From positions 1 to 37,568 of the forward strand of contig JAGWTI010000027.1 of the NCBI GenBank assembly GCA_028876065.1: 37,568 nucleotides of DNA, written 5' to 3'. This document shows, in pieces, positions 197 through 17,421 of this stretch. How positions within the stretch are numbered: the first letter of the stretch is position 1; each line of letters starts with the position of its first letter. Below the pieces are notes generated by a model, which had not been told where the DNA came from, did no database searches, and saw only the letters and a program-made list of their open reading frames with translations. Origin of the DNA: Nitrospirota bacterium (lineage in GTDB: Bacteria > Nitrospirota > Nitrospiria > Nitrospirales > Nitrospiraceae). Made by a program: the position numbers and the translations under genes.

Positions 197-850
197 ATGA
201 AGACGAATCTGGCAAAGAAACCCAAGTTCGGTGAAGCCTATATGGAGCTCGGCCTGGTCGAGAAGGCCGAGGAGGGGGGGTGGCTCGTGCGGACGGACGG
301 AGGGTTGGTGGAGGCCAAGCGGGCCACCGGCTGCCTGCTGGAGCCGATCCCGTCCGATCTGGTCCTGCTGTCCTACGGATCGAAGGGGTGGGCCTACATC
401 CTGTCCGTGCTGGAGCGGCGGGGCGACCAAGCCGGGACCCTTTCCTACGAGGGGGCCCTCACCTTGGCGGCGCGGGAGGGTCGGCTGAACCTGACGTCGG
501 CGCAAGGGCTGTCGCTCTCCTCCGACAAGGACCTGACCGTGGCGGTCGAGCGCTTGTCCGTCGCCGCACAGGAAGGGGAGGCGCGGGTCGGCATGTTCGC
601 GACGATCGGCCGCTACCTGCAGACGCAGGCCGAGCACATCACCGTCGTGGCCGAGGCCTGGGACTCGGTCGTCAACCGGATGACGCAAAAGCTGAAGCTC
701 AACATCCGCTACGTGTCGGAGGCGGAGGAGGTGCAGGCGGCCAGCCTGCGGCAACTGGTGGACGGGACCATGACGATCCATGCGAAGAACACCAACCTGA
801 TCGCCGAGGAGCATGTGAAGGTGGACGCGGAACAGATTCACTTAGGATAA
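197..850 (+). CDS. DUF3540 family T6SS-associated protein
   Basis: The product has 217 residues. It matches the DUF3540 pattern as I know it: a short N-terminal strand region, then a beta-rich middle with EGALTLAAREGRLNLTSAQG-type alternating hydrophobic repeats (about residues 85-110), then a helical part and a C-terminal repeat-like tail ending in AEQIHLG. DUF3540 genes travel with DUF2169, DUF4150/PAAR-like and VgrG genes in T6SS loci, as here. The role is unproven; assistance in loading or assembling the VgrG/PAAR tip is plausible. The start is supported by GGAGGGG at 186-192 just before the ATG. A run of seven G at 274-280 lies inside the gene but the frame stays open. Confidence 0.8.
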   Translation: MKTNLAKKPKFGEAYMELGLVEKAEEGGWLVRTDGGLVEAKRATGCLLEPIPSDLVLLSYGSKGWAYILSVLERRGDQAGTLSYEGALTLAAREGRLNLTSAQGLSLSSDKDLTVAVERLSVAAQEGEARVGMFATIGRYLQTQAEHITVVAEAWDSVVNRMTQKLKLNIRYVSEAEEVQAASLRQLVDGTMTIHAKNTNLIAEEHVKVDAEQIHLG

Positions 851-959: not shown

Positions 960-1364
960 ATGTTTGTCTCGACGATGGAAGGCGGTATGAACATGGGCAT
1001 GCCGGACGTCTGCAAGACGCCGGTCGGGCCGGTCATCACGCCGATTCCCTATCCCAACATCTCCACCGGCGTGATGGCGAACCCCGGGACCTGCGCGATG
1101 ACGGTCCTGACCTCGGCCATGCCCTCGGTGACGCAGATCACGGAAATCATGCTGAGTCAGGGCGACGACGCCGGCGTGCTGATGGGCGTGGTGTCCCAGA
1201 TGGTCATGGGGCCGACGGAGCACCTGCTGGGCGCCCCGACCGTGCTGTTCGAAGGCACCCCCGTCCAGCATCTCACGACGATGACCGGCCACAACGGCAT
1301 GGCGATGAACTGTCCCGGCGCGACCCTGGCGCCGAGCCAGGTGACCGTCTTGGCCCTGGGCTGA
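960..1364 (+). CDS. DUF4150 / PAAR-like T6SS tip protein
   Basis: The product has 134 residues and the features of a DUF4150 (PAAR-like) protein. It opens with a Met/Gly-rich stretch, followed by PDVCKTPVGPVITPIPYPNI, a hallmark of the family. The central Met-rich segment and the C-terminal part with GHNGMAMNCPGATLAPSQ follow. PAAR-like proteins form the sharp cone on the end of the VgrG trimer and may carry effectors; this one is a bare tip with no extra toxin domain. It lies directly upstream of vgrG, which fits the assignment. AGGAGG at 948-953 supports the ATG. Confidence 0.85.
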   Translation: MFVSTMEGGMNMGMPDVCKTPVGPVITPIPYPNISTGVMANPGTCAMTVLTSAMPSVTQITEIMLSQGDDAGVLMGVVSQMVMGPTEHLLGAPTVLFEGTPVQHLTTMTGHNGMAMNCPGATLAPSQVTVLALG

Positions 1365-1429: not shown

Positions 1430-3760
1430 ATGGCGACGTTTGACGATCGGCTCGGCCGGGACAAGCGATTCTCCTTCGTCTCGACCGCCGTCTCCCCCGA
1501 CACCTTTGCCGTGGTCGAGCTGGAGGGGGTCGAGGCCATCTCGCGGCCCTATGAATTTACGCTCACCCTGGTTTCCGAGCGCGCCGAGCTCGATCTGAAC
1601 GCCCTGCTCGCCCGTCCCGTCTCGCTGACGATCCGTTCGCGCACGCCGGCGCGGCAGCCGAACCCCTATCGGGGCGTGTTGGTGGAGTGCTCGCAGTTGC
1701 AGCAGGTTGCGGACGGGCTGACGTTTCGGCGGAACTCCGAGGTGTACCTCAACCAAACGGTGCCGCAGGTCATCGAGACCGTCCTGAAAAATTCCGGCTT
1801 CGGGTCGGCGGATTACGAGTTTCGGTTGGCCCGGAAGGATTATCGCGTCTTGCCCTACATCTGTCAGTTCGAAGAATCCGCGCTCACGTTCATCAGCCGG
1901 TGGATGGAATGGCGGGGCCTCTATTACTTTTTCGAGCAGGGCGCGGATCAGGAGAAGATGATCGTCACCGACAACCGGCTGGCGCACGTCGCCTCACGGG
2001 ACGCCGTGACGTACCGGCCGGCCGCGCAACTGGACACCGGCGTCGCCGACGAATTCGTGCAGGCCTTGATCTGCACGCAGAAGCAGGTGCCGCGCAAAGT
2101 CGGGGTGAAGGAATACCACTACGACAAGGCGACGCTGTCGTTGATCGGCGAGGCCGAGGTGTCGGCCCAGGGGACCGGCGAAATGTGGCTGTACGGAGAG
2201 CATTTTTGGACGGCGGAGGGCTCGGCCAAGCTCGCGTCGATCCGGGCCGAGGAACTGGCCTGCCGCGAGAAAGTCTTTCACGGGGAAGCGACGGCAACCG
2301 GATTGCGAGCCGGCTATACGATGGGCCTGCAGGGCCACTATCGCGCGGATTGCAACCGGGAGTATCTGGCGATGGACGTTCGTCACGAGGGATCGCAGGC
2401 CGGGTCGTTGCTGGCCGGCCTGAGCCTCCCGTCCGAAACCGGCCTGTCGGCGCGCGAGGATTTTTACCGGGCGACGTTCTCGGCCATCCCGTCGGACGTC
2501 CAGTTCCGGTCGGAACGTCTGACGCCGAAGCCGCGGATCAGCGGGGTCATCAGCGCCTTCGTGGACGCGGAAGGCAGCGGCGACTATGCCGAGATCGACG
2601 AGCAGGGCCGCTACAAGGTGCAGGTGCCGTTCGACAAGACGGACAAGGCGGCCGGCAAGGGCTCGGCGTGGGTCCGCAAAGCGTCGCAGTATTCGGGAAA
2701 GGATCACGGGCTGCACTATCCCCTGCACAAGGGGGCGGAAGTGCTCCTGGGGTTCGAGAACGGAGACCCGGACCGGCCCATCATTCTCGGCTCGGTCTTC
2801 AATTCGCAGAACCCCAACATGGTGACCCGCAACAACCAGACGCAGACCGTGCTGCACACGGCCGGCGGCAATCACATGCAGTTCGAGGATCAGGAAGGGG
2901 AGGAGCATATCTTCTTCAGCACCCCGAAGGCCGGCACGTCCCTGCGATTGGGCGCCGGCCCCCAGTCCACAGTGGGCGCTCAGGCCGCGGCGGGGACGAG
3001 CTTTTCCGACCGGGACGGCTTCGTGTTTTCGACCAACGCGAACTGGAGCGAAACGACGAGCGGCAACAAGACGGTCACCGTGAGCGGCAACCTCTCCGTC
3101 ACGACGTCCGGGGCGAAGACCGAAGAGGTGGACGGGGATCAGACCGAAACCGTCAAGGGCAAGCGGATCGCCAATTGGGGCACACCGGGCCTGGCCGGAT
3201 CGGAAGCCGGGCAGTTCATCCCGGTGGCCAGCACGGTCGGCCCTCATGTCGGAAACGCCAGCGCGCACTTTACCCCGACGTCCCAGGAGATGATCTGGGG
3301 CGGCCACAGCCAGACCGTCATGGGCAACATGAGCCGAACCGCCATCGGCACCTCGCACTCCGACACTTTTATCTCCGCGGGCTCGACGACCTTTCACATC
3401 GGCGCGCATCTGAATGTCGGGGTCGTTGAGGTCCAGTCGTGGGGACAGTACGTCAACGCGGCGGTCAGCAAGATCCAGGCCGCCGTGAACAAGGTGGCCA
3501 CGGCCGTCTCGAAAGTCACCTCCTCGGTCAACCGTGTGCAGGTTGCGGAGGATTCCGTCGAGGTCGATGAGATCCGATCCCAGCTCGCAGCGCTGCGCCT
3601 GGCCAACATGGAAGTGGACGTCGAGGACCAGGGCGTTGCCGTGCAAAATTCCGGCGTGCATGTGCATGAGTCCGAGACCAGGGTGTCGAACTCGTCCGGC
3701 ATCGCCATCCAAAACGCGCCGATTATCGTGAACGACGCCGGCGTGGCGTTTCTGGGGTAA
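1430..3760 (+). CDS. vgrG: VgrG, T6SS spike protein (first copy)
   Basis: The product has 776 residues. Residues about 1-360 are the gp27-like base (FEES.LTFISRWMEWRGLYYFF near residue 150). Residues about 370-455 form the gp5-like OB fold (GRYKVQVPFDKTDKA at 393, then HYPLHKGAEVLLGFENGDPD). After it come VgrG strand repeats (GNHMQFEDQEGEEHI; SGNKTVTVSGNLSVTTSG) and a C-terminal tail of repeated V.V..S.V segments from about 660. No separate toxin domain is evident, but the tail may dock an effector. Compared with the second VgrG here, about 14 residues are missing at residues 99-100, where YRAVLVPRLWRLSL would be expected. The frame stays open across that gap. GGGGAGG at 1418-1424 supports the start. 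Confidence 0.93.
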   Translation: MATFDDRLGRDKRFSFVSTAVSPDTFAVVELEGVEAISRPYEFTLTLVSERAELDLNALLARPVSLTIRSRTPARQPNPYRGVLVECSQLQQVADGLTFRRNSEVYLNQTVPQVIETVLKNSGFGSADYEFRLARKDYRVLPYICQFEESALTFISRWMEWRGLYYFFEQGADQEKMIVTDNRLAHVASRDAVTYRPAAQLDTGVADEFVQALICTQKQVPRKVGVKEYHYDKATLSLIGEAEVSAQGTGEMWLYGEHFWTAEGSAKLASIRAEELACREKVFHGEATATGLRAGYTMGLQGHYRADCNREYLAMDVRHEGSQAGSLLAGLSLPSETGLSAREDFYRATFSAIPSDVQFRSERLTPKPRISGVISAFVDAEGSGDYAEIDEQGRYKVQVPFDKTDKAAGKGSAWVRKASQYSGKDHGLHYPLHKGAEVLLGFENGDPDRPIILGSVFNSQNPNMVTRNNQTQTVLHTAGGNHMQFEDQEGEEHIFFSTPKAGTSLRLGAGPQSTVGAQAAAGTSFSDRDGFVFSTNANWSETTSGNKTVTVSGNLSVTTSGAKTEEVDGDQTETVKGKRIANWGTPGLAGSEAGQFIPVASTVGPHVGNASAHFTPTSQEMIWGGHSQTVMGNMSRTAIGTSHSDTFISAGSTTFHIGAHLNVGVVEVQSWGQYVNAAVSKIQAAVNKVATAVSKVTSSVNRVQVAEDSVEVDEIRSQLAALRLANMEVDVEDQGVAVQNSGVHVHESETRVSNSSGIAIQNAPIIVNDAGVAFLG

Positions 3761-3839
3761 CGGTGCCGGGGCGGGCGGGCCGGCCGGCCGGATCCGAGGA
3801 GGGACATCCTTAGCGGAATCGAGCAGGAGGTGGGTAGCG

Positions 3840-5681
3840 ATGGGGAAGTTCGATCAGGTGTTGGGAGAGAACAAGTTCCTGTCCTTTGCCTCGAAGGGGG
3901 CGCCGGCCGGGACGTTCGCGGTCCTGGATCTCGACGGGTACGAAGCGCTGTCCTACCTCTACGAGTTCACGGTCACCCTGATCTCGGAAGATGCGGACGT
4001 GGACCTGGAGAAGGTTTTGTCGCATTCGGCCACCCTCACCGCGTATCCCAAGGACAAGCGATTCAAACCCGTGACCTGCTCCGGTATCCTGCGTTCGCTG
4101 GAGCAGATGGGGCAAACCCATGGATACTGTCTCTACCGGGCGGTGCTCGTGCCGAGGCTCTGGCGTCTGTCGCTGATCAAGCAGTCGGAAATCTATGTGA
4201 ATCAGACGATCCCCCAGGTCGTAGAGTCCTTGTTGCGCAAGGCCGGGCTGGACTTCGAATGGAAGCTCGGCGGGCCGTCGAAGCGGAAGGTGTGGCCGGC
4301 CCTGTGCCAGTACGAGGAGTCCGATCTCGAATTTTTCTCGCGGCTCTTGGAGCGCGAGGGCATTTACTATTTCTTCGATGAAAAGGACGGACGCGATGTG
4401 CTCATGCTCGTGGACGACCGGCGCTACCATGCCGCCACGGCGCGGAACGTCTCCTATCGGCCGAACGATCCGGTGGCGGAAACCGGCTTGACGGACCGGA
4501 CGGTCCAGGCGTTTATCTGCCAGCGGCGTCCGACGCCCCGGACGGTGACGTTGCGCAATTACAATCCGGACCGAGCCAGCGCCGGCGACCTGGCTGTGTC
4601 CGCCGAGGTGTCGCCTCATGGGTTCGGCGAGATGGCCTTGTACGGCGAACAGTACGAGACGAAGGAGGAGGGGCAGGCCTTGGCCAGGATCCGTGCGGAG
4701 GAACTGGCCTGCCGTGCGAACGTGTTCCATGGCGAAAGTCATTCCGCCTTGCTGTGGACCGGAGATTTTTTGGCCCTCTCGAACCATTTTCGATCGGACT
4801 TCAACGGCAAATATCTGGTCACGAGCGTGCGGCACAAGGGCACGCAAGCGAGGGCGTTGTTGGGCGGGACGTCGGAGCCGGATGGGCCCCCCGAGAGCCC
4901 GAGCGGGTACTACGCGGAATTCACGGCGATTCCCGCCGACGTGCAGTTCAGGCCGGAGCGGCGGACGCCCAAACCCAAGGTCTCCGGGACGATGACGGCC
5001 TTTGTGGACGCGGAAGGCGCCGGCACCTATGCGGAAGTGGACGAGCGGGGGCGGTATAAAATTCAGGTGCCGTTCGACGTCACGGACAAGGCCGCCGGTC
5101 GGGGCTCGGCCTGGATCAGGATGGCGACACCCTATGCCGGCAAGGACGCCGGCATGCATTTTCCTCTACACAAGGGCACGGAGGTGCTATTGTCCTTCGT
5201 GGACGGGGACCCGGACCGGCCGATTATCACGGCTGCCGTGCCCAACTCGCTGGCCGCCAGCGTGGTGACGCGGAAGAACGAAACGCAGAGCGTCATCCAC
5301 ACGGCCGGAGACAACCACCTCGTCTTTGAAGACCGGGAGGGGCACGAGGCCATTCGTCTCGAGTCCCCCGCCGCCCGCACCGCGATTGTGCTCGGCGCGG
5401 CCGACGGAGCGCCAACGGGGTTGACCCTCAACACCGAAGGCGACAGGACCGAGTCCACCGGCGGGAACAAACAGGAAGCGACGGAAGGGAATCAGACGAT
5501 CTCCGTCTCGGGAGACGTCGCCCGGAGGATCTTCGGGAAAGAAGTCACCATCCGCCACCAGGGGGCAACCGACATCATGGTGGGGGGGGGCTGCGAACAC
5601 AAGTCACGGCCGGAGCCAAAGCCGAGACCGTGGGGGGCTTCAAAGCCGAGGTCGTGGTCGGAGGCAAATTGGCTGTCATAG
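3840..5681 (+). CDS. vgrG: VgrG, T6SS spike protein (second copy), main frame ending early after a G9 tract
   Basis: The frame gives 613 residues with a complete gp27-like region, including YRAVLVPRLWRLSL, and a gp5-like OB fold (GRYKIQVPFDVTDKAAG...HFPLHKGTEVLLSFVDGDPD). The strand repeats then begin, but after IMVGGG the frame reads nonsense (CEHKSRPEPKPRPW...) and stops at 5681. The break coincides with nine G at 5582-5590. One extra G would read on as GGGLRTQVTAGAKAETVGG and join the next frame to its stop at 6052, giving about 737 residues, close to the first VgrG. AGGAGG at 3825-3830 supports the ATG. This may be a true frameshift, slippage-based expression, phase variation or a homopolymer sequencing error. 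Confidence 0.85.
   Translation: MGKFDQVLGENKFLSFASKGAPAGTFAVLDLDGYEALSYLYEFTVTLISEDADVDLEKVLSHSATLTAYPKDKRFKPVTCSGILRSLEQMGQTHGYCLYRAVLVPRLWRLSLIKQSEIYVNQTIPQVVESLLRKAGLDFEWKLGGPSKRKVWPALCQYEESDLEFFSRLLEREGIYYFFDEKDGRDVLMLVDDRRYHAATARNVSYRPNDPVAETGLTDRTVQAFICQRRPTPRTVTLRNYNPDRASAGDLAVSAEVSPHGFGEMALYGEQYETKEEGQALARIRAEELACRANVFHGESHSALLWTGDFLALSNHFRSDFNGKYLVTSVRHKGTQARALLGGTSEPDGPPESPSGYYAEFTAIPADVQFRPERRTPKPKVSGTMTAFVDAEGAGTYAEVDERGRYKIQVPFDVTDKAAGRGSAWIRMATPYAGKDAGMHFPLHKGTEVLLSFVDGDPDRPIITAAVPNSLAASVVTRKNETQSVIHTAGDNHLVFEDREGHEAIRLESPAARTAIVLGAADGAPTGLTLNTEGDRTESTGGNKQEATEGNQTISVSGDVARRIFGKEVTIRHQGATDIMVGGGCEHKSRPEPKPRPWGASKPRSWSEANWLS
5582..5590 (+). other. G9 homopolymer tract at the vgrG frame change
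   Basis: Nine consecutive G follow GGT. The tract sits exactly where VgrG homology switches frame; a tract of ten G would make a single open frame. Long G tracts are classic sites of replication slippage and also of transcriptional or ribosomal slippage. Confidence 0.85.
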
Positions 5682-6080: not shown

Positions 6081-6857
6081 ATGAAAACCGTTTGGGTCAC
6101 CGCATTGGCGAAAGACGAGGCCCGCGTCCAGCAGGTCATGGGACAGCTCAAGACGTATGGGCTGGCCCCCAACGGCCACTTCTGGATCGACAATCTGGAG
6201 AAGATGGCCTGGATGGGCGCGCGCGACGAAATGAAGAACAGCAAGGCCGCTCTGTGGCTGGTGCTGGCGTCGGAGAAGGAATTGGCCCAGCCGTCGATCC
6301 GGTACGGACTCTCGCTGATGGCGCTCTCGACGTATGCCGCCAACGGAACCGGATTCCCGGTGGTGTTGCTGTCCAGCGGGAAAGAAGCCGTGGCGCCGGC
6401 GACCCTGCCGACGCCGCTGCGCGGGGCGACGGTCTGGTCGGACACGGCTCCGGCCTGGCAGGCCAAACTGGTGGCCCAGGTGAACAAGCCCCAGGCGCAA
6501 GTCGCCCAGGACTATCGGCTGGACGTCTATGGCGATCCGAACCTGGGGCAGTGGTTCGAGGTGGGGCCGGCGCAGGGAACCTGGACCGGGGCCATGTTCG
6601 GCGTGGCCGGCGCGGAGATCACGTTCCATGCGGTGGGGCCCAAGGGCAAGCTGCCGGAGCGCACGGTGCTCGAATACGAACAGAAAGGGTTCGAACTGGC
6701 TTTGGGGGACAAAAAATTCACCGCCTGGGCGCTCAAAAACGTTGTGGAGGCAAGCCAGTCCTACTTTGTCCGCGTGAAGGGCCAGCCGGACTCCCTGCTG
6801 TTCAGCCAGTACGCCGAAGGTCAGGACGCCGAGGTCTTTACCTTGCAATTGAAATAA
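6081..6857 (+). CDS. T6SS-linked protein of unknown function with a TIR-like N-terminal half
   Basis: The product has 258 residues, is soluble, and has no signal peptide or membrane segment. Residues 1-100 alternate strands and helices in a TIR-like order: VWVTALAKDEARVQQVM (strand A, helix A), HFWIDNLEKMAWMGARDEMK (W-x-D after strand B), ALWLVLASE (strand C), PSIRYGLSLMAL, then GFPVVLLSSG (strand D). The catalytic Glu of NAD-cleaving TIR domains is not evident at the expected W...E site. Residues about 150-258 look like a beta-sandwich (GQWFEVGPAQGTWTGAMFGV...). The gene lies between vgrG and tssJ, with GAGGAG at 6073-6078. It could be an effector, an adaptor or a structural accessory. The TIR likeness is my reading of the pattern, not a proven homology. 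Confidence 0.5.
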   Translation: MKTVWVTALAKDEARVQQVMGQLKTYGLAPNGHFWIDNLEKMAWMGARDEMKNSKAALWLVLASEKELAQPSIRYGLSLMALSTYAANGTGFPVVLLSSGKEAVAPATLPTPLRGATVWSDTAPAWQAKLVAQVNKPQAQVAQDYRLDVYGDPNLGQWFEVGPAQGTWTGAMFGVAGAEITFHAVGPKGKLPERTVLEYEQKGFELALGDKKFTAWALKNVVEASQSYFVRVKGQPDSLLFSQYAEGQDAEVFTLQLK

Positions 6858-6886
6858 TGCGGGCCATTTGAAATAATGGGCCGCAT
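6849..6886 (+). repeat. Near-perfect 19-bp direct duplication at the tssJ start
   Basis: TTGAAATAATGCGGGCCAT (6849-6867) is followed directly by TTGAAATAATGGGCCGCAT (6868-6886). The first copy includes the end of the upstream gene and the second includes the candidate tssJ ATG at 6876. The duplication appears to have replaced a normal spacer, and no good ribosome binding site is visible. Confidence 0.7.
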
Positions 6887-7544
6887 GCGCCGACTCCTCA
6901 GTCTCTCGCTCGCCTGCGCACTGTCGGTTGTTCTTCCCGCTTGCTCCACCATGAATTCCTGGTTCGGGGGCAACTCCGAGGAGGACGCCCGCAAACAGAT
7001 GCAATGGACCTACGGGTCCAATGCGATCACGGTCGAGGTCAAGCCGGACCCCAACCTCAACTTGTTCGGCGGCCAGCCGCATACGCTGGCCTTGGGCGTC
7101 TATCAGACCGCCGACCCGAACGCGTTCATTTCCCTGCTGAACGATCCGGCCGCCATCGGCAAGCTCTTCGCCACCGGCTATGCGAGCGCCGGGACCCTGG
7201 GCTTCACCCGGTATATCATCGAGCCGGGCAAACCGAAGACGATCACGGTGGATCGGGCGCAGAACGCGAAGTACGTCGGCATCGTCGCCGGCTATTTCAA
7301 GCTGGACCCCCCAAACACGGCCCGCCTGTTCCAGATCCCGGTTGTGGTGAAGACCAGCGGGTGGATCATCCATACCCGGGTCGCCAGCCCAGGGAACGTG
7401 GTGATCAATCTGTTGCTCGGCACCGAACAACTGGTCAACGCGCTCCGGGTCCGCCAGCCCGAGGAAGGCAAACCCAAGGAAGGCGAACCAGAAGCGGAGA
7501 CAGGCCAGATCAATCTTCTGACTCCCGCAGAAGGCGGCAAGTAA
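6876..7544 (+). CDS. tssJ: TssJ, T6SS outer-membrane lipoprotein
   Basis: The product has 222 residues with a lipoprotein signal: RRLLSLSLACALSVVLPAC places the lipidated Cys at residue 23, or 20 if the start is the ATG at 6885. The mature part carries the TssJ core: YGSNAITVEVKPDPNLN, then LALGVYQTADPNAFISLL, and YIIEPGKPKTITVDR followed by YVGIVAGYF. TssJ is a small beta-sandwich anchored in the outer membrane that binds the periplasmic part of TssM. The charged C-terminal tail (EEGKPKEGEPEAETG) is longer than usual. The start is uncertain because two in-frame ATGs lie within a duplicated sequence and neither has a clear ribosome binding site. Confidence 0.87.
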   Translation: MGRMRRLLSLSLACALSVVLPACSTMNSWFGGNSEEDARKQMQWTYGSNAITVEVKPDPNLNLFGGQPHTLALGVYQTADPNAFISLLNDPAAIGKLFATGYASAGTLGFTRYIIEPGKPKTITVDRAQNAKYVGIVAGYFKLDPPNTARLFQIPVVVKTSGWIIHTRVASPGNVVINLLLGTEQLVNALRVRQPEEGKPKEGEPEAETGQINLLTPAEGGK

Positions 7545-7953: not shown

Positions 7954-9351
7954 GTGGACAGTAAGAAGCCGATTTTTTGGCATCAAGGCCTCTTTCTCCA
8001 GCCCCAGCATTTTCAACTCTCCGACCTCTATGCAGGATTCCTCCAGCGTCCTTTCGCCGACCTAGGCCTGCCGCATTTCTGGGGAGTCGGGGCCCTGGAA
8101 CTGTCCGCCGCCGCCGTGAAGAACCTGTCGGTCGAGATCGCGCAGGCGCAGCTGCTGTTCCGCGACGGTACCTACGTGGAATATCCGGGCAACGCCCTGA
8201 TCAAATCCCGTTCGTTCAAGACGGACTGGGTCGAAGGGGATAAACCGTTTACGATCTACCTGGGTTTGAAGAAGATGAGCCAAACCCAGCCGAACGTCTC
8301 GGTCGTGAAATCCTACGACGACCTGCCCGAGGCCGCGACCCGATTCGCGACGACGGCGGACCCGGAAGAAGTCCGAGATCTCTATCAGGGCGGGACCACC
8401 GCCATGGTTCAGACCCTGACCTATGCGGTGAAAGTGTTCTGGGAGACCGAACTGGACCGGCTGGACGATTACGAGACGATCCCCGTGGCGCGACTGGAGC
8501 GGGACGGGGAAACCATCAAGCTCTCCGGCAAGTTCGTTCCGCCCTGCGTGGCCGTCTCCGCCTCCGGCGTCCTGATGGGCATCATCAAGGACATCCGCGA
8601 CGAGATCGCGGGCCGGGCCCGCCAACTGGAGGAATACAAAAGTCCGCGCGAGACGCAGAAAAGGGAATTCGACGCCGGCCACCTGGTCTACCTGCTGGCG
8701 TTGCGTTCGCTGAACCGGTACGTGCCGCTGCTGGTCCATTACACGGAAACCAAACAGGTGCATCCGTGGGTCATCTACGGCGCCCTGCGGCAAATGGTGG
8801 GCGAGCTGAGTTCGTTCTCGGAGCGGTTCAATATGCTGGGCGAGACGCAGGGCGGTCCGGCGGACGGCGGCACGGTGCCGGCCTACACCCACGACGACTT
8901 GGGCCGATGCATGGTCGCGGTGCGGAATCTGATCGCGCAGCTGTTGAACGAGATCACCATCGGCCCGGAATTCCTGGTCCGGCTCGAACTGCAAGACGGG
9001 TATTACGTCGCCGATCTGCCCAAAAACTTCTTCGCGCAACGCCACCGCTTCTACCTGGTGATGCGGACGGAGAGCGCGCCGGAGGGGCTGCTCCAGTCGT
9101 TTGAAGCCCAGGCGAAGCTGGGGGCGCGCGATCAAGTGCCGGTGCTGATCAGCCGGGCCCTGCCGGGCGTCGAGTTGATTCAACTGCCGGTGGCGCCGCA
9201 AGGTTTGCCGCGCCGCGCCAACTCCTTTTATTTTCGGGTCGAGCAATTCAGCGACCAATGGGATTTTGTGGAGCACAGCGGCAGCATCGCCCTCTACTGG
9301 GGTGAAGCGCCGGCGGACTTGCGGATCGAACTTGTGGCGCTGCGGGGATAG
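7954..9351 (+). CDS. tssK: TssK, T6SS baseplate protein
   Basis: The product has 465 residues, typical for TssK. It opens with the family signature PIFWHQGLFLQPQHFQ, then shows YVEYPGNALIKSRSFKTDW and, further on, the helical part with PLLVHYTETKQVHPWVIYG. The C-terminal domain (about 320-465) contains PKNFFAQRHRFYLVMRTE and RANSFYFRVEQFSDQWD. TssK trimers link the baseplate wedges to the membrane complex through TssL and TssM, encoded directly downstream. The start is a GTG at 7954, chosen because the family signature begins a few residues later; TAAGGG at 7941-7946 is a fair ribosome binding site. Confidence 0.95.
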   Translation: MDSKKPIFWHQGLFLQPQHFQLSDLYAGFLQRPFADLGLPHFWGVGALELSAAAVKNLSVEIAQAQLLFRDGTYVEYPGNALIKSRSFKTDWVEGDKPFTIYLGLKKMSQTQPNVSVVKSYDDLPEAATRFATTADPEEVRDLYQGGTTAMVQTLTYAVKVFWETELDRLDDYETIPVARLERDGETIKLSGKFVPPCVAVSASGVLMGIIKDIRDEIAGRARQLEEYKSPRETQKREFDAGHLVYLLALRSLNRYVPLLVHYTETKQVHPWVIYGALRQMVGELSSFSERFNMLGETQGGPADGGTVPAYTHDDLGRCMVAVRNLIAQLLNEITIGPEFLVRLELQDGYYVADLPKNFFAQRHRFYLVMRTESAPEGLLQSFEAQAKLGARDQVPVLISRALPGVELIQLPVAPQGLPRRANSFYFRVEQFSDQWDFVEHSGSIALYWGEAPADLRIELVALRG

Positions 9352-10062: not shown

Positions 10063-13000
10063 ATGACCAAGGTCCTCAAAGTCCTGCTCTATATCCTCGC
10101 GCTGTTCTTCCTCTTATTGGTCTGTTGGGGGCTGACCCTCTATTGGGGGTGGAAGCCGGCCGCCGTCTTGCCGCTCTTCGTCGGGACGATCGGGCTCATC
10201 GTGGCCGTGCGATGGATCAAGCGGCTGGTGCTGGTCTATCGCGCCAAACGGCAAATCAGCCGCGCGGTCGAAGAGGCGCCGCTTCCGGCGGAGCCGCCGG
10301 CCACGGCCATCGGCCTCAAGGCCCAATGGCAGGCGGTCGTGCAGTTGCTGCGGGATTCCAATCTCCGCCAGCAGGGCGATCCCGTCTACGTGCTGCCCTG
10401 GTACCTCGTGCTGGGCGCCCCCGGCTCCGGGAAGTCGACGGCGCTCGGGCGGGCCAAAGCCGCGTCGCCGTTGAAAGACATCGCGCCGAGCGACGACCTG
10501 CGGGACGCGGGGCACGGCGAATGGTGGTTTCTCAACAACGCGATCGTCTTCGAAGCGCCGGGCGAATTCGCCGTGCCGCTCGCCGAAGCGCCGACGCGGG
10601 AGGACTGGGCGCAATGTCTCCTGCTCCTCGGCAAGTACCGGAAGCGGGAGCCGCTCAACGGCCTCATCGTGACGATCGCCGCCGACCGTCTGCTGACGGC
10701 GGGCACCGAGGCCTTGGTGGAAGAGGGGCGCTTTATCCGCAAGCGGATCGATCAATTGATGCGTTTGCTGGACGTCAAGTTCCCGGTCTACGTCATGGTG
10801 ACCAAATGCGACCTGCTCTACGGCTTTGCCTCGTGGCGACGCGCCATGCCGGACGCCCTGTTGGAGCAAGCGATGGGGTTTGTCGGCGGAGCGGACGCGG
10901 TGGACGGCAAGGCGTTTTTGGCCCAGGCGTTTGCCGCCGTCTCGGAGCGCATCAAGGACCTGCGCCTGGCCGGCGCCCATCGTCTCGGATCGCTGGATCT
11001 GCCGGGGCTGCTCTTCCCCGCCGAATTCGATCGGCTCAGCGCGGGACTGACGGACTTTTGGAATGCCGCGTTCAGCAGCGATCCCTACCTGGACTCGCCG
11101 CTCCTCCGCGCCCTCCTGTTCACGAGCGGACGGCAGGGCGAGGAGTCCGCCTCGACCGTGCTCAAAGACGCCGGCCTTGCCGTGGCCGCCCGACCGTCGC
11201 CCGGTCCATCGGCCGGCCTGTTCCTCCGCGACCTGTTCCGCGTCGTGCTCCCGGACGACCGGGGGTACTTCAAGCCGCTGGGGTACGTGCCTCGGTGGGA
11301 ACGCGTGATGCGGAACGTCGGCCTGACGACGTGGCTGGCGTTCGGATTGGTGGCCATCGCCGGATTGACCATTTCCTTCGCCTACAGCTTCAGCACGATG
11401 AACCATCTGCGCAACGAGTATCCGGGCAAGCGGGCGCAACTGACCGGCAAATTGAAATACGACCTGCCGGCCATGGGCCAGTACATTCCGTTGCTGCGAC
11501 GGATGGAGGAGGGGGACCAGAACTGGTTCGTGCGGCTGGTCCCGTTCAACGGGCAGATCGTGCAACTGGAGGATCAGCTGCAGCAGGCCTACGCCGACGA
11601 TTTCCGCAAGCTCTTGCTCGCGGATCTCGACACCAGGTTGGCCCGAGGGCTCGAACTGCTCGCGGCGCAGGACCCAGAGAACGTCCGCCCCTTGCTCCTG
11701 GAGCTGATCGTCCGGCGCGTCAATTTGATCAAAGCACGACTGGCGGGCGACGGACTGGACAAGCTGGTAACGATGCCGAACCCTTTTGCGGAGGGGCCGA
11801 CCCTGGCGAGAGTGGCCGACCCGAACGCGGAGGCCTCGCCCGAAGCCATGCAACAGTTCGGCTACCTCTATGCCGCTTACGTGGCCTGGGAGCAACATCC
11901 GGAGCAGCTCCAGTACGAGCTCGACACGCTCCAGGGGTGGCTGAATCAATATGCGCTGACCAGCAGCGGGCTGGGCTGGCTGCGCGGCTGGGCCAATCAG
12001 CGGGCCGGGCTTGCGCCGGTCACGTTGAAAGACTTCTGGTATGGGAGCCGGTCCGTGGCGGAGCAGGTGACGGTGGAGGCGGCGTTCACACGGCAAGGCA
12101 AGGAGGCCATCGACCGGTTCGTCGAGGAATTGGCCGCCGCCGCGGCGGATCCGGCCAGTCTGACCGAAGCCAAGGCGGTGCTGGAGACGTGGTACCTGAG
12201 CGAGAAGATCAAGGCCTGGTATGTCTTTCTCCGCAACGTCGACGTGGGGAAGACCATGCTGGCGGGCGAGCTCGAGTGGAAAGTCTTCATGGAGAAGATC
12301 ACCAGCGAGCACAGCCCCTACTACGCCTTGCTCGCCAGGTTGGATCAGGAGTTCAGCGACTATCGGGACGAACAACAATTGCCCGATTGGGTCAAGTTGG
12401 CCCGCCACCTCGCCGCGATCCGCCCCGCCACCACCAAGCCCGGCATGATGGAGAAGGCCGAGATGGTGACCGGCGTCATCAACCGGACGGGCGGGGAGAT
12501 GATCCGCCAGGCCCTCTCCGGCGGGGCCGGGAAGGGGAAAGAGCTGTTCCAGAATCAACTCAACGCGGCCAAGACGTTCCAGACCTATCAAGCGGAGCTG
12601 GATATGATCTGGAAAGAGGCGGTGTTGGGCCAAGGCCGTGCGTACAAGATCGCCACCGACTTCCACACCTTCTCCCTGGACCCCTCCGTCAAAGCGTCCC
12701 CCTTCCACGCCGCGTACGAGGCCCTGGCGACCATCAAGAAGCTGCTGGGCGCGCGGGACGATTTTGAAAACCGCGCGGTCTGGACGCTGATCGAAGGGCC
12801 GCTCCGGTTCTCCATGGATTTCGTGGAAGAAGAGGCGGCCTGTACGCTGCAGAAAGAATGGGAAGCGAAGGTGCTCTATCCGACGCAGGGCGCGGCGTCG
12901 TCGAGCGATCTGCACGACGTGCTCTACGGGCAGAAAGGCGCGGTCTGGGCCTTCGCGGACGGGTCCGCCAAGCCGTTCGTCGTGCGCGATGCGCGGGCCT

Positions 13001-14793
13001 ACCATTTCATCGAAACGCTGGGCGCCCGCGTCCCGTTCACCGACCAGTTCCTGCCGTTCATGAACGAGGCCTTGAACCGGGTGGTGGAGCAGAAGGTCGA
13101 GACCAAAGCGGTGGAGATCGAGCAGAAGCAGCTCAAGCTGGAGTCCCAGAAAAAGATGGCCGGCGTCGAGGCGGCGTTGGGCGACCTCAAGGGCTCGATG
13201 GAGCAGTTGAAGCAGGCCGTCACCAACGTCACGATCAAGGGACTCCCGACCGGAGTCAATCCGGACGCGAAGGTCGGCCCCTTTGCCACCGTCCTGACGG
13301 TCGAATGTGTGGGCGGGGCCCGCGCGATTCCCAACTACAACTTCCCCGTCACCGACACCTTCAAGTGGTCGCCGATGACCTGCGGGGACGTGACGCTGCA
13401 GATCAAGCTGGAGGATTTCACGCTCGTGAAACGGTATCCGGGCGCCAGGGGCTTCGCCCGCTTCCTCCAGGATTTCTACGACGGGGAACGCAGCTTCACG
13501 CCGGCCGAATTTCCGCAGCAACAGCAGCGGCTGGAGCTCCTGGGCATCACGTCCATCCGGGTGCGCTACGAGATCACCGGGCAAGAGGCGATCCTGGCCC
13601 AGACGAAAAAGCTGGATCAGCTCGAGCAGGAAGAGAAGCGCCGGCAGGAGGCGAAGCGGGCGCTGCAGGCGCAGCAGGATAAGCTGGAAGAGCAAAACCT
13701 GGAAGAAGTGTCGCGGGCCGCGGCCAACGGCCAGCTCGCCAGCGCGACGATCGCGGCCATGCTGAAAGATCTGGACCAGTCGCTGGCCGATTTGAAGGGG
13801 TCGCTGGAGGTGCTGAAGAACACCGTCACCTCGGTCACGATCAGCGGACTGCCCACCAGCGTCAACGTCGAGGCCAAGGCCAATCCCTCCGCCACGACGC
13901 TGACCGTGCAGTGCGCCGCCGGCGTCAATACGATTCCCAATTACAACTTCCCCGTCGTGGGCAGCTTCCAATGGTCGCCCAACACCTGCGGCGATACGAC
14001 CCTGCAAGTGGTGCTCGACGGTCTCATGCTGAGCAAGAAGTATCCGGGGCCCGAGGGGTTCGCCCGCTTCCTGCAGGACTTCTATTCCGGCGACCATCTG
14101 TTTACGCCGGCCGATTTCCCGCAGCACAAGCAGCGGTTGGAGCTGATGGGGGTCAAGACCGTCCGGGTCCGCTACGAGATCGCCGGCCAGGAGACGATCC
14201 TGGAGCAGATCCGACAGACGGACCGGCTGGAACAGCAGGAGCGGCGTCGGCAGCAGCTCCGGCTCCTGCTGGAAGACCAGCAGGACCAGATGCTCGCGCA
14301 AGAGGCGAAGGAGAAACAGAAAGAACTCCGGCAGAAGCCGCAGATCAAGGTCTCCGTCCCGGCCAGGATCGCGGCCTGTTGGGATCAACCGGGAAACGGC
14401 CTGCCCAAGAGCGGGATGCACACGGCGGCCGTGACGGCCGAGCCGGCCGCCCCGGTGGCGACGGGCAACCCCGTCGCCATGGCCGACGTGCCGATGCCCG
14501 ACCAGGCTCGGGTGATGACGGTGGGGATGCTGTCGTCCGCGCCGGACGGCGCCTTCGCCGTCCAAGTGGGCGCGTTTTTATCGGAGACCAACGCCGAAAC
14601 GTTGCGGAAGCAGCTGGAAGTGAGGGGGTACACGACCACCATCCTGATCGAGCAGGATGGGCGGCAGCGGGACTGGTACACCGTCCTCATCGGCTGGGAC
14701 ATGGACCGGGTGCGGGCGTACCAGGCGGCGGAAGACTACAAAGCGTACGAGCAGTTGCCCGCCATCGTGCGCGAGCTGGCTCCGTCCAGCTAG
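10063..14793 (+). CDS. tssM: TssM (IcmF family) with duplicated C-terminal domain and SPOR domain
   Basis: The product has 1576 residues, against roughly 1100-1300 for most TssM. Two N-terminal membrane segments lie in residues about 4-50. The cytoplasmic NTPase-like domain has a P-loop, GAPGSGKST, at 118-126. A third membrane segment follows at about 418-440, then the long periplasmic part. Residues about 1035-1185 and 1240-1390 are two copies of one domain: each has DLKGS-type helix, GLPT.VN, IPNYNFPV, WSP.TCGD.TLQ, GFARFLQDFY and RVRYEI.GQE. They are joined by charged coiled-coil segments. Residues 1497-1576 are a SPOR domain (FAVQVGAFLSETNAETLRKQ... WYTVLIGW), which binds denuded peptidoglycan. 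TssM spans the envelope between TssL and TssJ. The stop codon overlaps the stop of the opposite antiporter gene. Confidence 0.93.
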   Translation: MTKVLKVLLYILALFFLLLVCWGLTLYWGWKPAAVLPLFVGTIGLIVAVRWIKRLVLVYRAKRQISRAVEEAPLPAEPPATAIGLKAQWQAVVQLLRDSNLRQQGDPVYVLPWYLVLGAPGSGKSTALGRAKAASPLKDIAPSDDLRDAGHGEWWFLNNAIVFEAPGEFAVPLAEAPTREDWAQCLLLLGKYRKREPLNGLIVTIAADRLLTAGTEALVEEGRFIRKRIDQLMRLLDVKFPVYVMVTKCDLLYGFASWRRAMPDALLEQAMGFVGGADAVDGKAFLAQAFAAVSERIKDLRLAGAHRLGSLDLPGLLFPAEFDRLSAGLTDFWNAAFSSDPYLDSPLLRALLFTSGRQGEESASTVLKDAGLAVAARPSPGPSAGLFLRDLFRVVLPDDRGYFKPLGYVPRWERVMRNVGLTTWLAFGLVAIAGLTISFAYSFSTMNHLRNEYPGKRAQLTGKLKYDLPAMGQYIPLLRRMEEGDQNWFVRLVPFNGQIVQLEDQLQQAYADDFRKLLLADLDTRLARGLELLAAQDPENVRPLLLELIVRRVNLIKARLAGDGLDKLVTMPNPFAEGPTLARVADPNAEASPEAMQQFGYLYAAYVAWEQHPEQLQYELDTLQGWLNQYALTSSGLGWLRGWANQRAGLAPVTLKDFWYGSRSVAEQVTVEAAFTRQGKEAIDRFVEELAAAAADPASLTEAKAVLETWYLSEKIKAWYVFLRNVDVGKTMLAGELEWKVFMEKITSEHSPYYALLARLDQEFSDYRDEQQLPDWVKLARHLAAIRPATTKPGMMEKAEMVTGVINRTGGEMIRQALSGGAGKGKELFQNQLNAAKTFQTYQAELDMIWKEAVLGQGRAYKIATDFHTFSLDPSVKASPFHAAYEALATIKKLLGARDDFENRAVWTLIEGPLRFSMDFVEEEAACTLQKEWEAKVLYPTQGAASSSDLHDVLYGQKGAVWAFADGSAKPFVVRDARAYHFIETLGARVPFTDQFLPFMNEALNRVVEQKVETKAVEIEQKQLKLESQKKMAGVEAALGDLKGSMEQLKQAVTNVTIKGLPTGVNPDAKVGPFATVLTVECVGGARAIPNYNFPVTDTFKWSPMTCGDVTLQIKLEDFTLVKRYPGARGFARFLQDFYDGERSFTPAEFPQQQQRLELLGITSIRVRYEITGQEAILAQTKKLDQLEQEEKRRQEAKRALQAQQDKLEEQNLEEVSRAAANGQLASATIAAMLKDLDQSLADLKGSLEVLKNTVTSVTISGLPTSVNVEAKANPSATTLTVQCAAGVNTIPNYNFPVVGSFQWSPNTCGDTTLQVVLDGLMLSKKYPGPEGFARFLQDFYSGDHLFTPADFPQHKQRLELMGVKTVRVRYEIAGQETILEQIRQTDRLEQQERRRQQLRLLLEDQQDQMLAQEAKEKQKELRQKPQIKVSVPARIAACWDQPGNGLPKSGMHTAAVTAEPAAPVATGNPVAMADVPMPDQARVMTVGMLSSAPDGAFAVQVGAFLSETNAETLRKQLEVRGYTTTILIEQDGRQRDWYTVLIGWDMDRVRAYQAAEDYKAYEQLPAIVRELAPSS
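13165..14250 (+). repeat. Internal duplication coding for two C-terminal TssM beta domains
   Basis: The region encoding residues about 1035-1185 (13165-13617) is repeated as residues about 1240-1390 (13780-14232). The protein likeness is clear over about 150 residues, with shared NYNFPV, GFARFLQDFY and RVRYEI. The DNA has diverged, so the event is old. Each copy is followed by a Gln/Glu/Arg-rich helix. Confidence 0.85.
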
Positions 14794-16233: not shown

Positions 16234-17421
16234 TTACGGTTTGGTCTGGTTGGCGATCTCGGCGAGGTCCTTCGGGTAGAGCGTGATCTCGATGCGGCGG
16301 TTGGCTTTGCGCCCCTCCTCCGTGTCGTTGTCGGCCACCGGTTTCGTATCCGCATGCCCCTCCGCCGAGAGCAGGGCTCGATCGACTCCGCCCTGCTCGA
16401 TCAGGTGCCGCGCCACGCTGGCGGCGCGGACGGCGGAGAGCTCCCAGTTGGTCGGAAATTTATCCCTGAGCTTCTCCCTGATCGGCACGTTGTCGGTATG
16501 GCCCTCGACCAGGACCTGCCTGTCGGGGGCGGTCTTGATGAGATCCGCCGCGAGTTTGAGAAATTTCAGGCCGGCCGGTTTGACTTGGCTCTGGCCAGAC
16601 TCGAAGAGGAGCCGGTCCGCGATGCGGACCGTCAGCCGGTCCCGGTTCGGCGTGATCAGGATGTCGCCCCTGACCATCTCGGTCTCGAACGATCTGGCGA
16701 AGTCTTCCTGCGCCCTGGACAAGAGGCGCAGGGTCCCCGCGTCCCTGGCGGCCCGTTCCTGCTCCAGTTTCGCCTTCTCCGCTTCCATGGATTTGAGCCG
16801 CTCCTCCTGCTGCTGGAGCGTGACCTGCATCCGCGCAACCTCTTCCCGAGCGGTCGTGGTGCCGCTCAAGAGCCGCTGTTTGTCTTCCCGCAAAATGGCC
16901 ACCTTCACTTGTTCGGTGGCGAGCTTGGTGGCCAACTCCTTCCCCTGGTCGCGCGCCTCGGCCAGCGCCGCGGCGAACTGCTCCTTCTCCTTTTCGAGCG
17001 CCGCGCCGCGGGCGCTTGTCTCGGACAGGCTCTGCTGCACCTTTTCGTTCCGGTCCTGCAGTTTCTTGACCTGGCCCTCGAGATCCCGCCGGTTCTCCTG
17101 CTCGGCGGCGAGATTCTTGCCGGTCGTGTCCAGCGCGGCTTGCGTCTCGGCCAGCGAGGCCTTGGCGGTGTGCAGGTCGGCCGCGAGCCTGGCCTTGTCC
17201 TCCTTCAACGCCGCGAGGTCCTGAGCGGATTTTTTCCTGGCCGCCTCCGCTTCGGCCGCCGCTTGCTTTTTGTACGCGTCCAGGTCCGCCGCGGTCCTGG
17301 ACGCCGACGTCCGCGCGCGTTCCAGTTCGGCCAGCGCCTGCCGATGCGTGTCCGAACTGACGCACCCGGCGGCAAGCATGGCACAGAGCCCGACGAGCGC
17401 AACCCGTATGAACGACATCAT
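16234..17421 (-). CDS. OmpA-family lipoprotein with long coiled coil
   Basis: The product has 395 residues. It starts with a lipoprotein signal, SFIRVALVGLCAMLAAGC, placing the lipidated Cys at residue 20. Residues about 25-250 form a long Ala/Glu/Lys/Arg-rich coiled coil. Residues about 265-390 are an OmpA/MotB-type peptidoglycan-binding domain: LLFESGQSQVKPAG, VEGHTDNVPI with the binding Asp, NWELSAVRAASVARHLIEQG, and GRKANRRIEI with the binding Arg. It would tie the outer membrane to the cell wall across the coiled-coil span. Two ATGs overlap at the start (17421 and 17418); GGGGGGA just upstream serves either. It is followed on the same strand by the antiporter after 265 bp. Confidence 0.9.
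   Translation of the reverse strand: MMSFIRVALVGLCAMLAAGCVSSDTHRQALAELERARTSASRTAADLDAYKKQAAAEAEAARKKSAQDLAALKEDKARLAADLHTAKASLAETQAALDTTGKNLAAEQENRRDLEGQVKKLQDRNEKVQQSLSETSARGAALEKEKEQFAAALAEARDQGKELATKLATEQVKVAILREDKQRLLSGTTTAREEVARMQVTLQQQEERLKSMEAEKAKLEQERAARDAGTLRLLSRAQEDFARSFETEMVRGDILITPNRDRLTVRIADRLLFESGQSQVKPAGLKFLKLAADLIKTAPDRQVLVEGHTDNVPIREKLRDKFPTNWELSAVRAASVARHLIEQGGVDRALLSAEGHADTKPVADNDTEEGRKANRRIEITLYPKDLAEIANQTKP

What the first reader, a model, noticed from the sequence alone, without database searches (positions are those of the whole stretch)
13165..14793. TssM with a duplicated C-terminal domain and a SPOR domain
Seen: residues about 1035-1185 and 1240-1390 are two copies of one beta domain, each followed by a charged helix, and residues 1497-1576 form a SPOR domain. 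Known: TssM usually ends in one such domain that contacts TssJ, and peptidoglycan anchoring in T6SS is usually given by an OmpA-like or SPOR extension on TssL or by TagL. Here TssL has no such extension. Inference: peptidoglycan anchoring has moved to TssM, and the second domain may lengthen the complex or bind a second TssJ.
Basis: partly seen in the sequence, partly recalled or inferred. Interest (0 to 1): 0.62.

Follow-up and report, generated by a model that had tools for sequence, protein, structure and literature searches.

The report
Secretion anchor with doubled tip domain
In a few Nitrospira-type bacteria, the main membrane anchor protein (TssM) of a toxin-injecting nanomachine carries two copies of its outer-membrane-contacting domain and ends in a domain known for gripping the cell wall, a combination I found in no other lineage I could search.

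Summary
TssM (10063-14793, 1576 aa) of a Nitrospiraceae MAG carries two tandem copies (61% identical, offset 202 residues) of one domain and ends in a SPOR domain above Pfam's cut-off. AlphaFold2 plus VIA-align matches the repeat to the C-terminal C2-like domain of EAEC TssM (Z 9.6-11, five top rows), the domain reported to contact TssJ. Both copies and SPOR are kept in two further species under purifying selection (dN/dS about 0.05-0.2; linker about 0.55). By gene order the cluster is Burkholderia T6SS-5-like. Homologous TssMs in other Nitrospirota families, Caballeronia, B. savannae and Rahnella have one copy and no SPOR, and end near a motif that in the window lies just after copy 2. Duplication and SPOR are thus derived in this genus. 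'Anchoring has moved to TssM' needs correcting: TssL is short in all related clusters scanned, and no peptidoglycan-binding domain was found there, so this looks like a gain. SPOR is known on TssL, and an OmpA domain on a TssM derivative (TagP); SPOR on the core TssM with a doubled C2-like domain is a new variant. Glycan binding and a second TssJ contact are inferred.

The parts
10063..14793 (+). TssM, 1576 aa, the only IcmF_N protein found in the genome
   Evidence: IcmF-related_N PF14331 E 8e-51; single match in genome
10063..10236 (+). TM1 and TM2 (residues 1-58)
   Evidence: hydropathy peaks
10597..11331 (+). cytoplasmic IcmF-related NTPase domain (179-423); Walker A GAPGSGKS at 118-125 lies just before
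11317..11394 (+). TM3 (419-444); what follows is expected to be periplasmic
   Evidence: hydropathy
11398..13188 (+). periplasmic region 446-1042, ending in a long helix (about 997-1042)
   Evidence: colinear with single-copy TssMs; helix in a low-confidence model
13189..13602 (+). copy R1 of the C2-like TssM C-terminal domain (1043-1180)
   Evidence: 61% identical to R2; model pLDDT 75 matches EAEC TssM, Z 9.6-11
13603..13791 (+). charged helix after R1 (1181-1243)
   Evidence: secondary structure; 91-94% identical among orthologues
13795..14208 (+). copy R2 of the C2-like domain (1245-1382)
14209..14346 (+). charged helix after R2 (1383-1428)
   Evidence: secondary structure
14350..14388 (+). 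tail motif VPARIAACW (I1436 and C1439 invariant), the C-terminal end region of single-copy TssMs
   Evidence: alignment A1
14389..14544 (+). fast-evolving Ala/Pro-rich linker (1443-1494)
   Evidence: dN/dS 0.49-0.59 for 1440-1494
14545..14778 (+). SPOR domain (1495-1572), with Q1501 at the glycan-contact position
   Evidence: PF05036 E 6.7e-10; dN/dS 0.09-0.12; position of the Gln from PMC6895207
9354..10022 (+). TssL, short form, 222 aa, no peptidoglycan-binding extension
   Evidence: DotU PF09850 E 2e-35 over 3-208
7954..9351 (+). TssK
   Evidence: PF05936 E 1e-113
6876..7544 (+). TssJ lipoprotein (222 aa), single copy in genome
   Evidence: PF12790 E 2.5e-9; one match per genome
6081..6857 (+). 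conserved 258-aa protein of unknown function between VgrG and TssJ
   Evidence: no Pfam match; a similar 259-aa protein in the Caballeronia cluster
197..850 (+). TagC-5-like DUF3540 protein
   Evidence: PF12059 E 2e-54
960..1364 (+). TagD-5-like PAAR-like protein
   Evidence: position and sequence start as in the B. savannae DUF4150 gene and relatives
1430..3760 (+). VgrG
3840..5681 (+). second VgrG

Best explanation
This is the core TssM of a Burkholderia T6SS-5-like type VI secretion system. In an ancestor of three sampled Nitrospiraceae species, the unit 'C2-like C-terminal domain plus charged helix' was duplicated in tandem, and a SPOR domain on a flexible linker was added after the old C-terminus. 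Most likely the C2-like domains work in the periplasm near TssJ at the outer membrane, so each TssM offers two such sites (a second TssJ copy or a TssM-TssM contact). The SPOR domain binds peptidoglycan strands stripped of peptides and so ties the trans-envelope complex to the cell wall, in a system whose gene cluster has no other wall-binding domain that I found. Shown: gene identity, duplication, fold match, SPOR membership, selection, and single-copy SPOR-less relatives. Inferred: glycan binding, anchoring, and what the second C2-like domain touches.
For: SPOR above cut-off with Q1501-V-x-A1504-F1505 matching the contact pattern of RlpA SPOR (Q270, A273, F274; PMC6895207). Repeat model (pLDDT 74.9, pTM 0.73): the five best structural matches are all EAEC TssM C-terminal domain, Z 9.6-11.0, rmsd 2.3-3.1, above unrelated C2 domains at 7.3 or less. 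hhalign of the repeat family against canonical TssM C-termini scores 33.8; best of 100 column shuffles 20.6. Those canonical C-termini hit 4Y7L/4Y7M/6HS7/6IXH by sequence. EAEC TssM contacts TssJ through this beta domain (PMC10564176). R1 rows group 100/98, R2 rows 94/95, together 99/97. Both copies fit a profile of single-copy domains (161-169 bits). dN/dS: R1 0.05-0.10, R2 0.07-0.21, SPOR 0.09-0.12, linker 0.49-0.59. Three TM segments put the C-terminus in the periplasm. The cluster pieces in hand (TssB, TssC; Hcp to TssM) show no other wall-binding gene by Pfam or by gene order.
Against: No binding data. The model of 987-1576 was poor (pLDDT 48), so the mutual placement of R1, R2 and SPOR is unknown; the repeat model rests on one good model of five (the others 32-43). 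Accessory proteins of the G001 and G002 clusters were read by gene order and sequence start, not all by profile. An OmpA-family lipoprotein lies 1.4 kb downstream on the other strand (16234-17421) and could also bind peptidoglycan, though it is no conserved neighbour. Three species only, all MAGs.
Confidence: 0.7

Rival explanations
1. SPOR is a positional cue rather than a mechanical anchor: it steers T6SS assembly to septal or freshly amidase-treated wall, where denuded glycans are plentiful and the wall may be easier to pass.
For: SPOR domains recognise denuded glycan and target proteins to the septum (PMC6895207); T6SS membrane complexes need local wall opening (PMC10433429). The long variable linker suits a tether or scout as well as a rigid anchor.
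Against: No data on septal localisation of this T6SS. The other wall-binding domains described on T6SS parts are read as anchors in the literature (PMC8253398).
Confidence: 0.2
2. The second C2-like domain is a spacer that lengthens TssM and has lost its partner contact; only one copy touches TssJ.
For: Each unit adds about 200 residues including a long helix; only one TssJ gene.
Against: Both copies keep 30-32 of 38 conserved family positions and score alike and are under strong constraint; a pure spacer would be expected to drift faster. Other Nitrospiraceae TssMs are of ordinary length.
Confidence: 0.25
3. The SPOR domain no longer binds glycan and is a protein-protein module, for example recruiting a lytic transglycosylase.
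For: EAEC TssM's C-terminal domain stimulates MltE (PMC10433429).
Against: The glycan-contact Gln and the strand pattern are conserved in all three orthologues.
Confidence: 0.1
4. Assembly or annotation artefact.
For: The genomes with this architecture are MAGs or draft contigs.
Against: Same architecture in three independent assemblies, with repeats diverged to 61% protein and 73% DNA identity, an open frame and low dN/dS.
Confidence: 0.01

Closest known systems
Burkholderia T6SS-5 (TssM-5; TagA/B-5, TagB-5, TagC-5, TagD-5)
   Same: Same gene order from TssE to TssM with the same accessory genes (table in PMC6335564); TssM homologous over most of its length at about 34% identity
   Different: TssM of B. 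savannae is 1234 aa and of Caballeronia 1289 aa, each with one C2-like domain and no SPOR
EAEC TssM C-terminal domain (PDB 4Y7L, 4Y7M, 4Y7O, 6HS7, 6IXH)
   Same: Fold of the repeated domain
   Different: One copy, no SPOR; in EAEC the wall anchor is the separate protein TagL (PMC8253398)
TagP (TssM derivative of Pseudomonas putida K1-T6SS)
   Same: Peptidoglycan-binding domain at the C-terminus of a TssM-like protein (PMC5363822, PMC10433429)
   Different: An OmpA-like domain stands in place of the C-terminal periplasmic part, and TagP is an accessory protein; here the core TssM keeps and doubles that part and carries SPOR
'Evolved' TssL with OmpA or SPOR extension (DotU-SPOR, 14 proteins in PMC3326028)
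   Same: SPOR fused to a T6SS membrane-complex subunit
   Different: On TssL, not TssM
SPOR domains of RlpA, FtsN, DamX, DedD, CwlC
   Same: Domain family; contact Gln kept
   Different: Those proteins belong to cell division, morphogenesis or sporulation

Membership tests
TssM / IcmF | IcmF-related N-terminal NTPase domain with TM segments | tested here: met
   PF14331 E 8e-51; three hydropathy peaks
TssM / IcmF | NCBIfam equivalog TIGR03348 score cut-off (a naming threshold, not a structural feature) | tested here: not met
   216 bits against 388; homology along the length to other TssMs of the T6SS-5-like subtype is shown, so I still file it as a TssM
TssM / IcmF | periplasmic C2-like C-terminal domain | tested here: met
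   present twice; Z 9.6-11 to EAEC TssM, hhalign against shuffles; not recognised by Pfam IcmF_C at E 0.01
TssM / IcmF | encoded next to tssJ, tssK, tssL | tested here: met
SPOR domain (PF05036) | score above gathering cut-off | tested here: met
   39.6 against 21 bits
SPOR domain (PF05036) | conserved glycan-contact Gln in strand 1 | tested here: met
   Q1501 in all three orthologues
SPOR domain (PF05036) | binds denuded glycan | not testable with these tools
   needs a binding assay
T6SS-5-like cluster | TagAB-5, TagB-5, TagC-5, TagD-5 set between VgrG and TssJ | tested here: met
   gene order in G001 compared with the annotated B. savannae plasmid; DUF3540 by Pfam
T6SS-5-like cluster | TssA present | tested here: inconclusive
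   no PF06812 match in own genome at E 0.01; a divergent TssA or a gap in the assembly is not excluded
TagP | OmpA-like domain in place of the TssM C-terminal domain, beside a true TssM | tested here: not met
   SPOR instead; C2-like domains kept; only IcmF_N protein in the genome
TssJ contact by each C2-like copy | physical interaction | not testable with these tools

The most novel reading that the evidence does not exclude
A T6SS membrane complex in which the core TssM itself holds the cell wall through SPOR and presents two rings of C2-like domains, doubling its contacts with TssJ or with itself, so that wall tethering and outer-membrane docking sit on one polypeptide and assembly may be steered to denuded glycan.
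Probability: 0.4. Interest if true: 0.65.

Novelty: new variant of a known kind. Interest (0 to 1): 0.48.

Why it matters
How T6SS membrane complexes pass and hold on to the cell wall is only partly understood, and wall-binding modules have been described on TssL or on accessory Tag proteins. A core TssM with its own SPOR domain gives a natural case in which the scaffold itself meets the wall, with a clear prediction (binding to denuded glycans) and a built-in control (single-copy, SPOR-less relatives). The doubled C2-like domain allows a test of how far the TssJ-TssM arrangement can be altered while being kept by selection.

Tried and rejected
Structure of 987-1576 from three sequences: pLDDT 48, not used for fold claims. 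Foldseek alone on the repeat gave only weak C2-domain matches (best E 0.06); VIA-align brought up TssM. Sequence search of PDB with the full TssM family found nothing useful. Viral contigs: no relative. Plasmids: no SPOR related to this one. The genome's other SPOR locus (L001) as the source of the TssM SPOR: no useful similarity found. Idea that a wide Nitrospira periplasm (own memory, not confirmed in the paper looked at) demands a longer TssM: weakened, since other Nitrospiraceae TssM frames are 1151-1287 aa. OmpA lipoprotein 16234-17421 as the T6SS anchor: opposite strand, not a conserved neighbour. Papers holding TssM or IcmF together with a SPOR domain: none describes SPOR on TssM; the key review on T6SS wall anchoring (Aschtgen 2010, Virulence) was not read here.

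Full report
What the sequence shows. The ORF 10063-14793 (+) encodes a 1576-aa TssM: IcmF-related_N domain (E 8e-51), then SPOR at 1495-1569 (E 6.7e-10, 39.6 bits, cut-off 21). It follows TssJ, TssK and a short TssL that matches DotU only. Residues about 1043-1180 (R1) and 1245-1382 (R2) align without gaps at 61% identity, offset 202 residues (173 bits, E 5e-61; DNA 73% identical). Hydropathy gives TM segments near residues 1-58 and 419-444, which puts everything after TM3 in the periplasm.

Conservation. The window lies in contig C14 of a Nitrospiraceae genome. Two further MAGs, Nitrospira sp. VGXC01000019 and Nitrospiraceae SYGV01000029, carry orthologues at 81% and 78% identity with the same layout, and SPOR is found in all three by a separate search. 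A fourth genome of the genus has no TssM match. Against the window, the cytoplasmic NTPase region is 63-64% identical, but R1 is 90-94%, R2 84-88% and SPOR 91-94%. Counts of synonymous and nonsynonymous change give dN/dS 0.05-0.10 for R1, 0.07-0.21 for R2, 0.09-0.12 for SPOR and 0.49-0.59 for the linker before SPOR. Both copies and SPOR are therefore kept by selection; the linker is free to vary.

What the repeat is. Pfam does not recognise it at E 0.01. AlphaFold2 on six copies (R1 and R2 of three species) gave one good model, pLDDT 74.9 and pTM 0.73, the other four being poor. VIA-align put EAEC TssM C-terminal domain structures in the first five rows: 6IXH Z 11.0, 4Y7M 10.9, 4Y7L 10.7, 4Y7O 10.4, 6HS7 9.6, rmsd 2.3-3.1 over 101-116 residues; unrelated C2 domains followed at 7.3 and below. 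Foldseek's own ranking was weak. Independently, hhalign of the repeat family against C-termini of canonical Nitrospirota TssMs scored 33.8, against at most 20.6 in 100 column shuffles and 16.1 for the reversed alignment, and those canonical C-termini hit the EAEC structures by sequence. In EAEC this beta domain contacts TssJ (PMC10564176).

Origin. Of 396 Nitrospirota genomes, 32 have an IcmF_N protein. Twelve of the proteins fetched, from families f21, f22 and f34, match this TssM along its length; eleven show one repeat domain (the twelfth, L070, is cut short). Five of them scanned against Pfam gave no SPOR at E 1, and the rest end the same way in the alignment. Homologues on plasmids of Caballeronia, Burkholderia savannae and Rahnella also have one copy, with no SPOR in the Pfam scan of the first two and only 54 residues after the domain in the third. 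In single-copy proteins the chain ends shortly after a motif I-x-x-C; the window has it at 1436-1439, after R2, and linker plus SPOR come after that. In a tree of the domain the R1 rows group (100/98), the R2 rows group (94/95), and both together are one clade (99/97): one duplication before the three species split. Both copies fit a profile of single-copy domains about equally (161-169 bits) and keep both cysteines.

System. In the relative G001 the order is TssE, TssF, TssG, TssH, VgrG, VgrG, a 955-aa TagAB-5-like protein, a TagB-5-like protein, DUF3540, PAAR-like, VgrG, 258-aa protein, TssJ, TssK, TssL, TssM (names other than those profiled in the window rest on sequence starts and order). 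This is the order of the annotated B. savannae cluster with TagAB-5 and TagB-5 and of Burkholderia T6SS-5 (PMC6335564). TssB and TssC lie on another contig in the window's genome and in G001, and beside Hcp and TssE in G002.

Peptidoglycan link. All seven TssLs of the related clusters in the Pfam batch matched DotU and are 221-229 aa; the 34 proteins scanned from those clusters gave no OmpA, SPOR or other wall-binding family. So the SPOR looks like a gain in a clade without a wall-binding domain in its cluster, rather than a transfer from TssL. SPOR domains bind glycan strands stripped of peptides; the contact residues Q270, A273 and F274 of RlpA (PMC6895207) correspond by the Q-V-x-A-F pattern to Q1501, A1504 and F1505 here (my alignment by motif). 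Function as an anchor is inferred. One TssJ gene per genome was found, so a second TssJ site, if real, takes the same lipoprotein.

Placement. SPOR on DotU/TssL is described (14 proteins, PMC3326028) and TagP is a TssM derivative with an OmpA-like domain (PMC5363822, PMC10433429). I found no paper with SPOR on TssM in the held library. I rate it a new variant of a known kind.

Limits. Three MAGs or draft genomes; no complex modelling; only Nitrospirota genomes plus plasmid and viral sets could be searched at the protein level, so the fusion may occur elsewhere unseen.

Noticed in passing
whole genome of the window (G000): No TssA (PF06812) match at E 0.01 in a genome rated 100% complete, although some related clusters carry ImpA_N proteins beside TssM.
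   Followed up: partly
window 6081-6857: 258-aa protein without any Pfam match just before TssJ, conserved in G001 and G002 and with a similar protein at the same place in Caballeronia (L086:10144-10923).
   Followed up: partly
window 16234-17421 (-): OmpA-family lipoprotein with a long charged, probably coiled region; other genomes of the genus gave only partial matches, mostly to the OmpA domain, and no full-length orthologue beside TssM.
   Followed up: partly
window 10597-11331: The cytoplasmic NTPase half of TssM diverges much faster (63-64% identity) than the periplasmic half (83-94%), the reverse of what I expected.
   Followed up: no
window 1430-5681 and L012: Two adjacent VgrG genes in the window; G001 has two VgrGs before and one after the Tag gene block: possible carriers of different effectors.
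   Followed up: no
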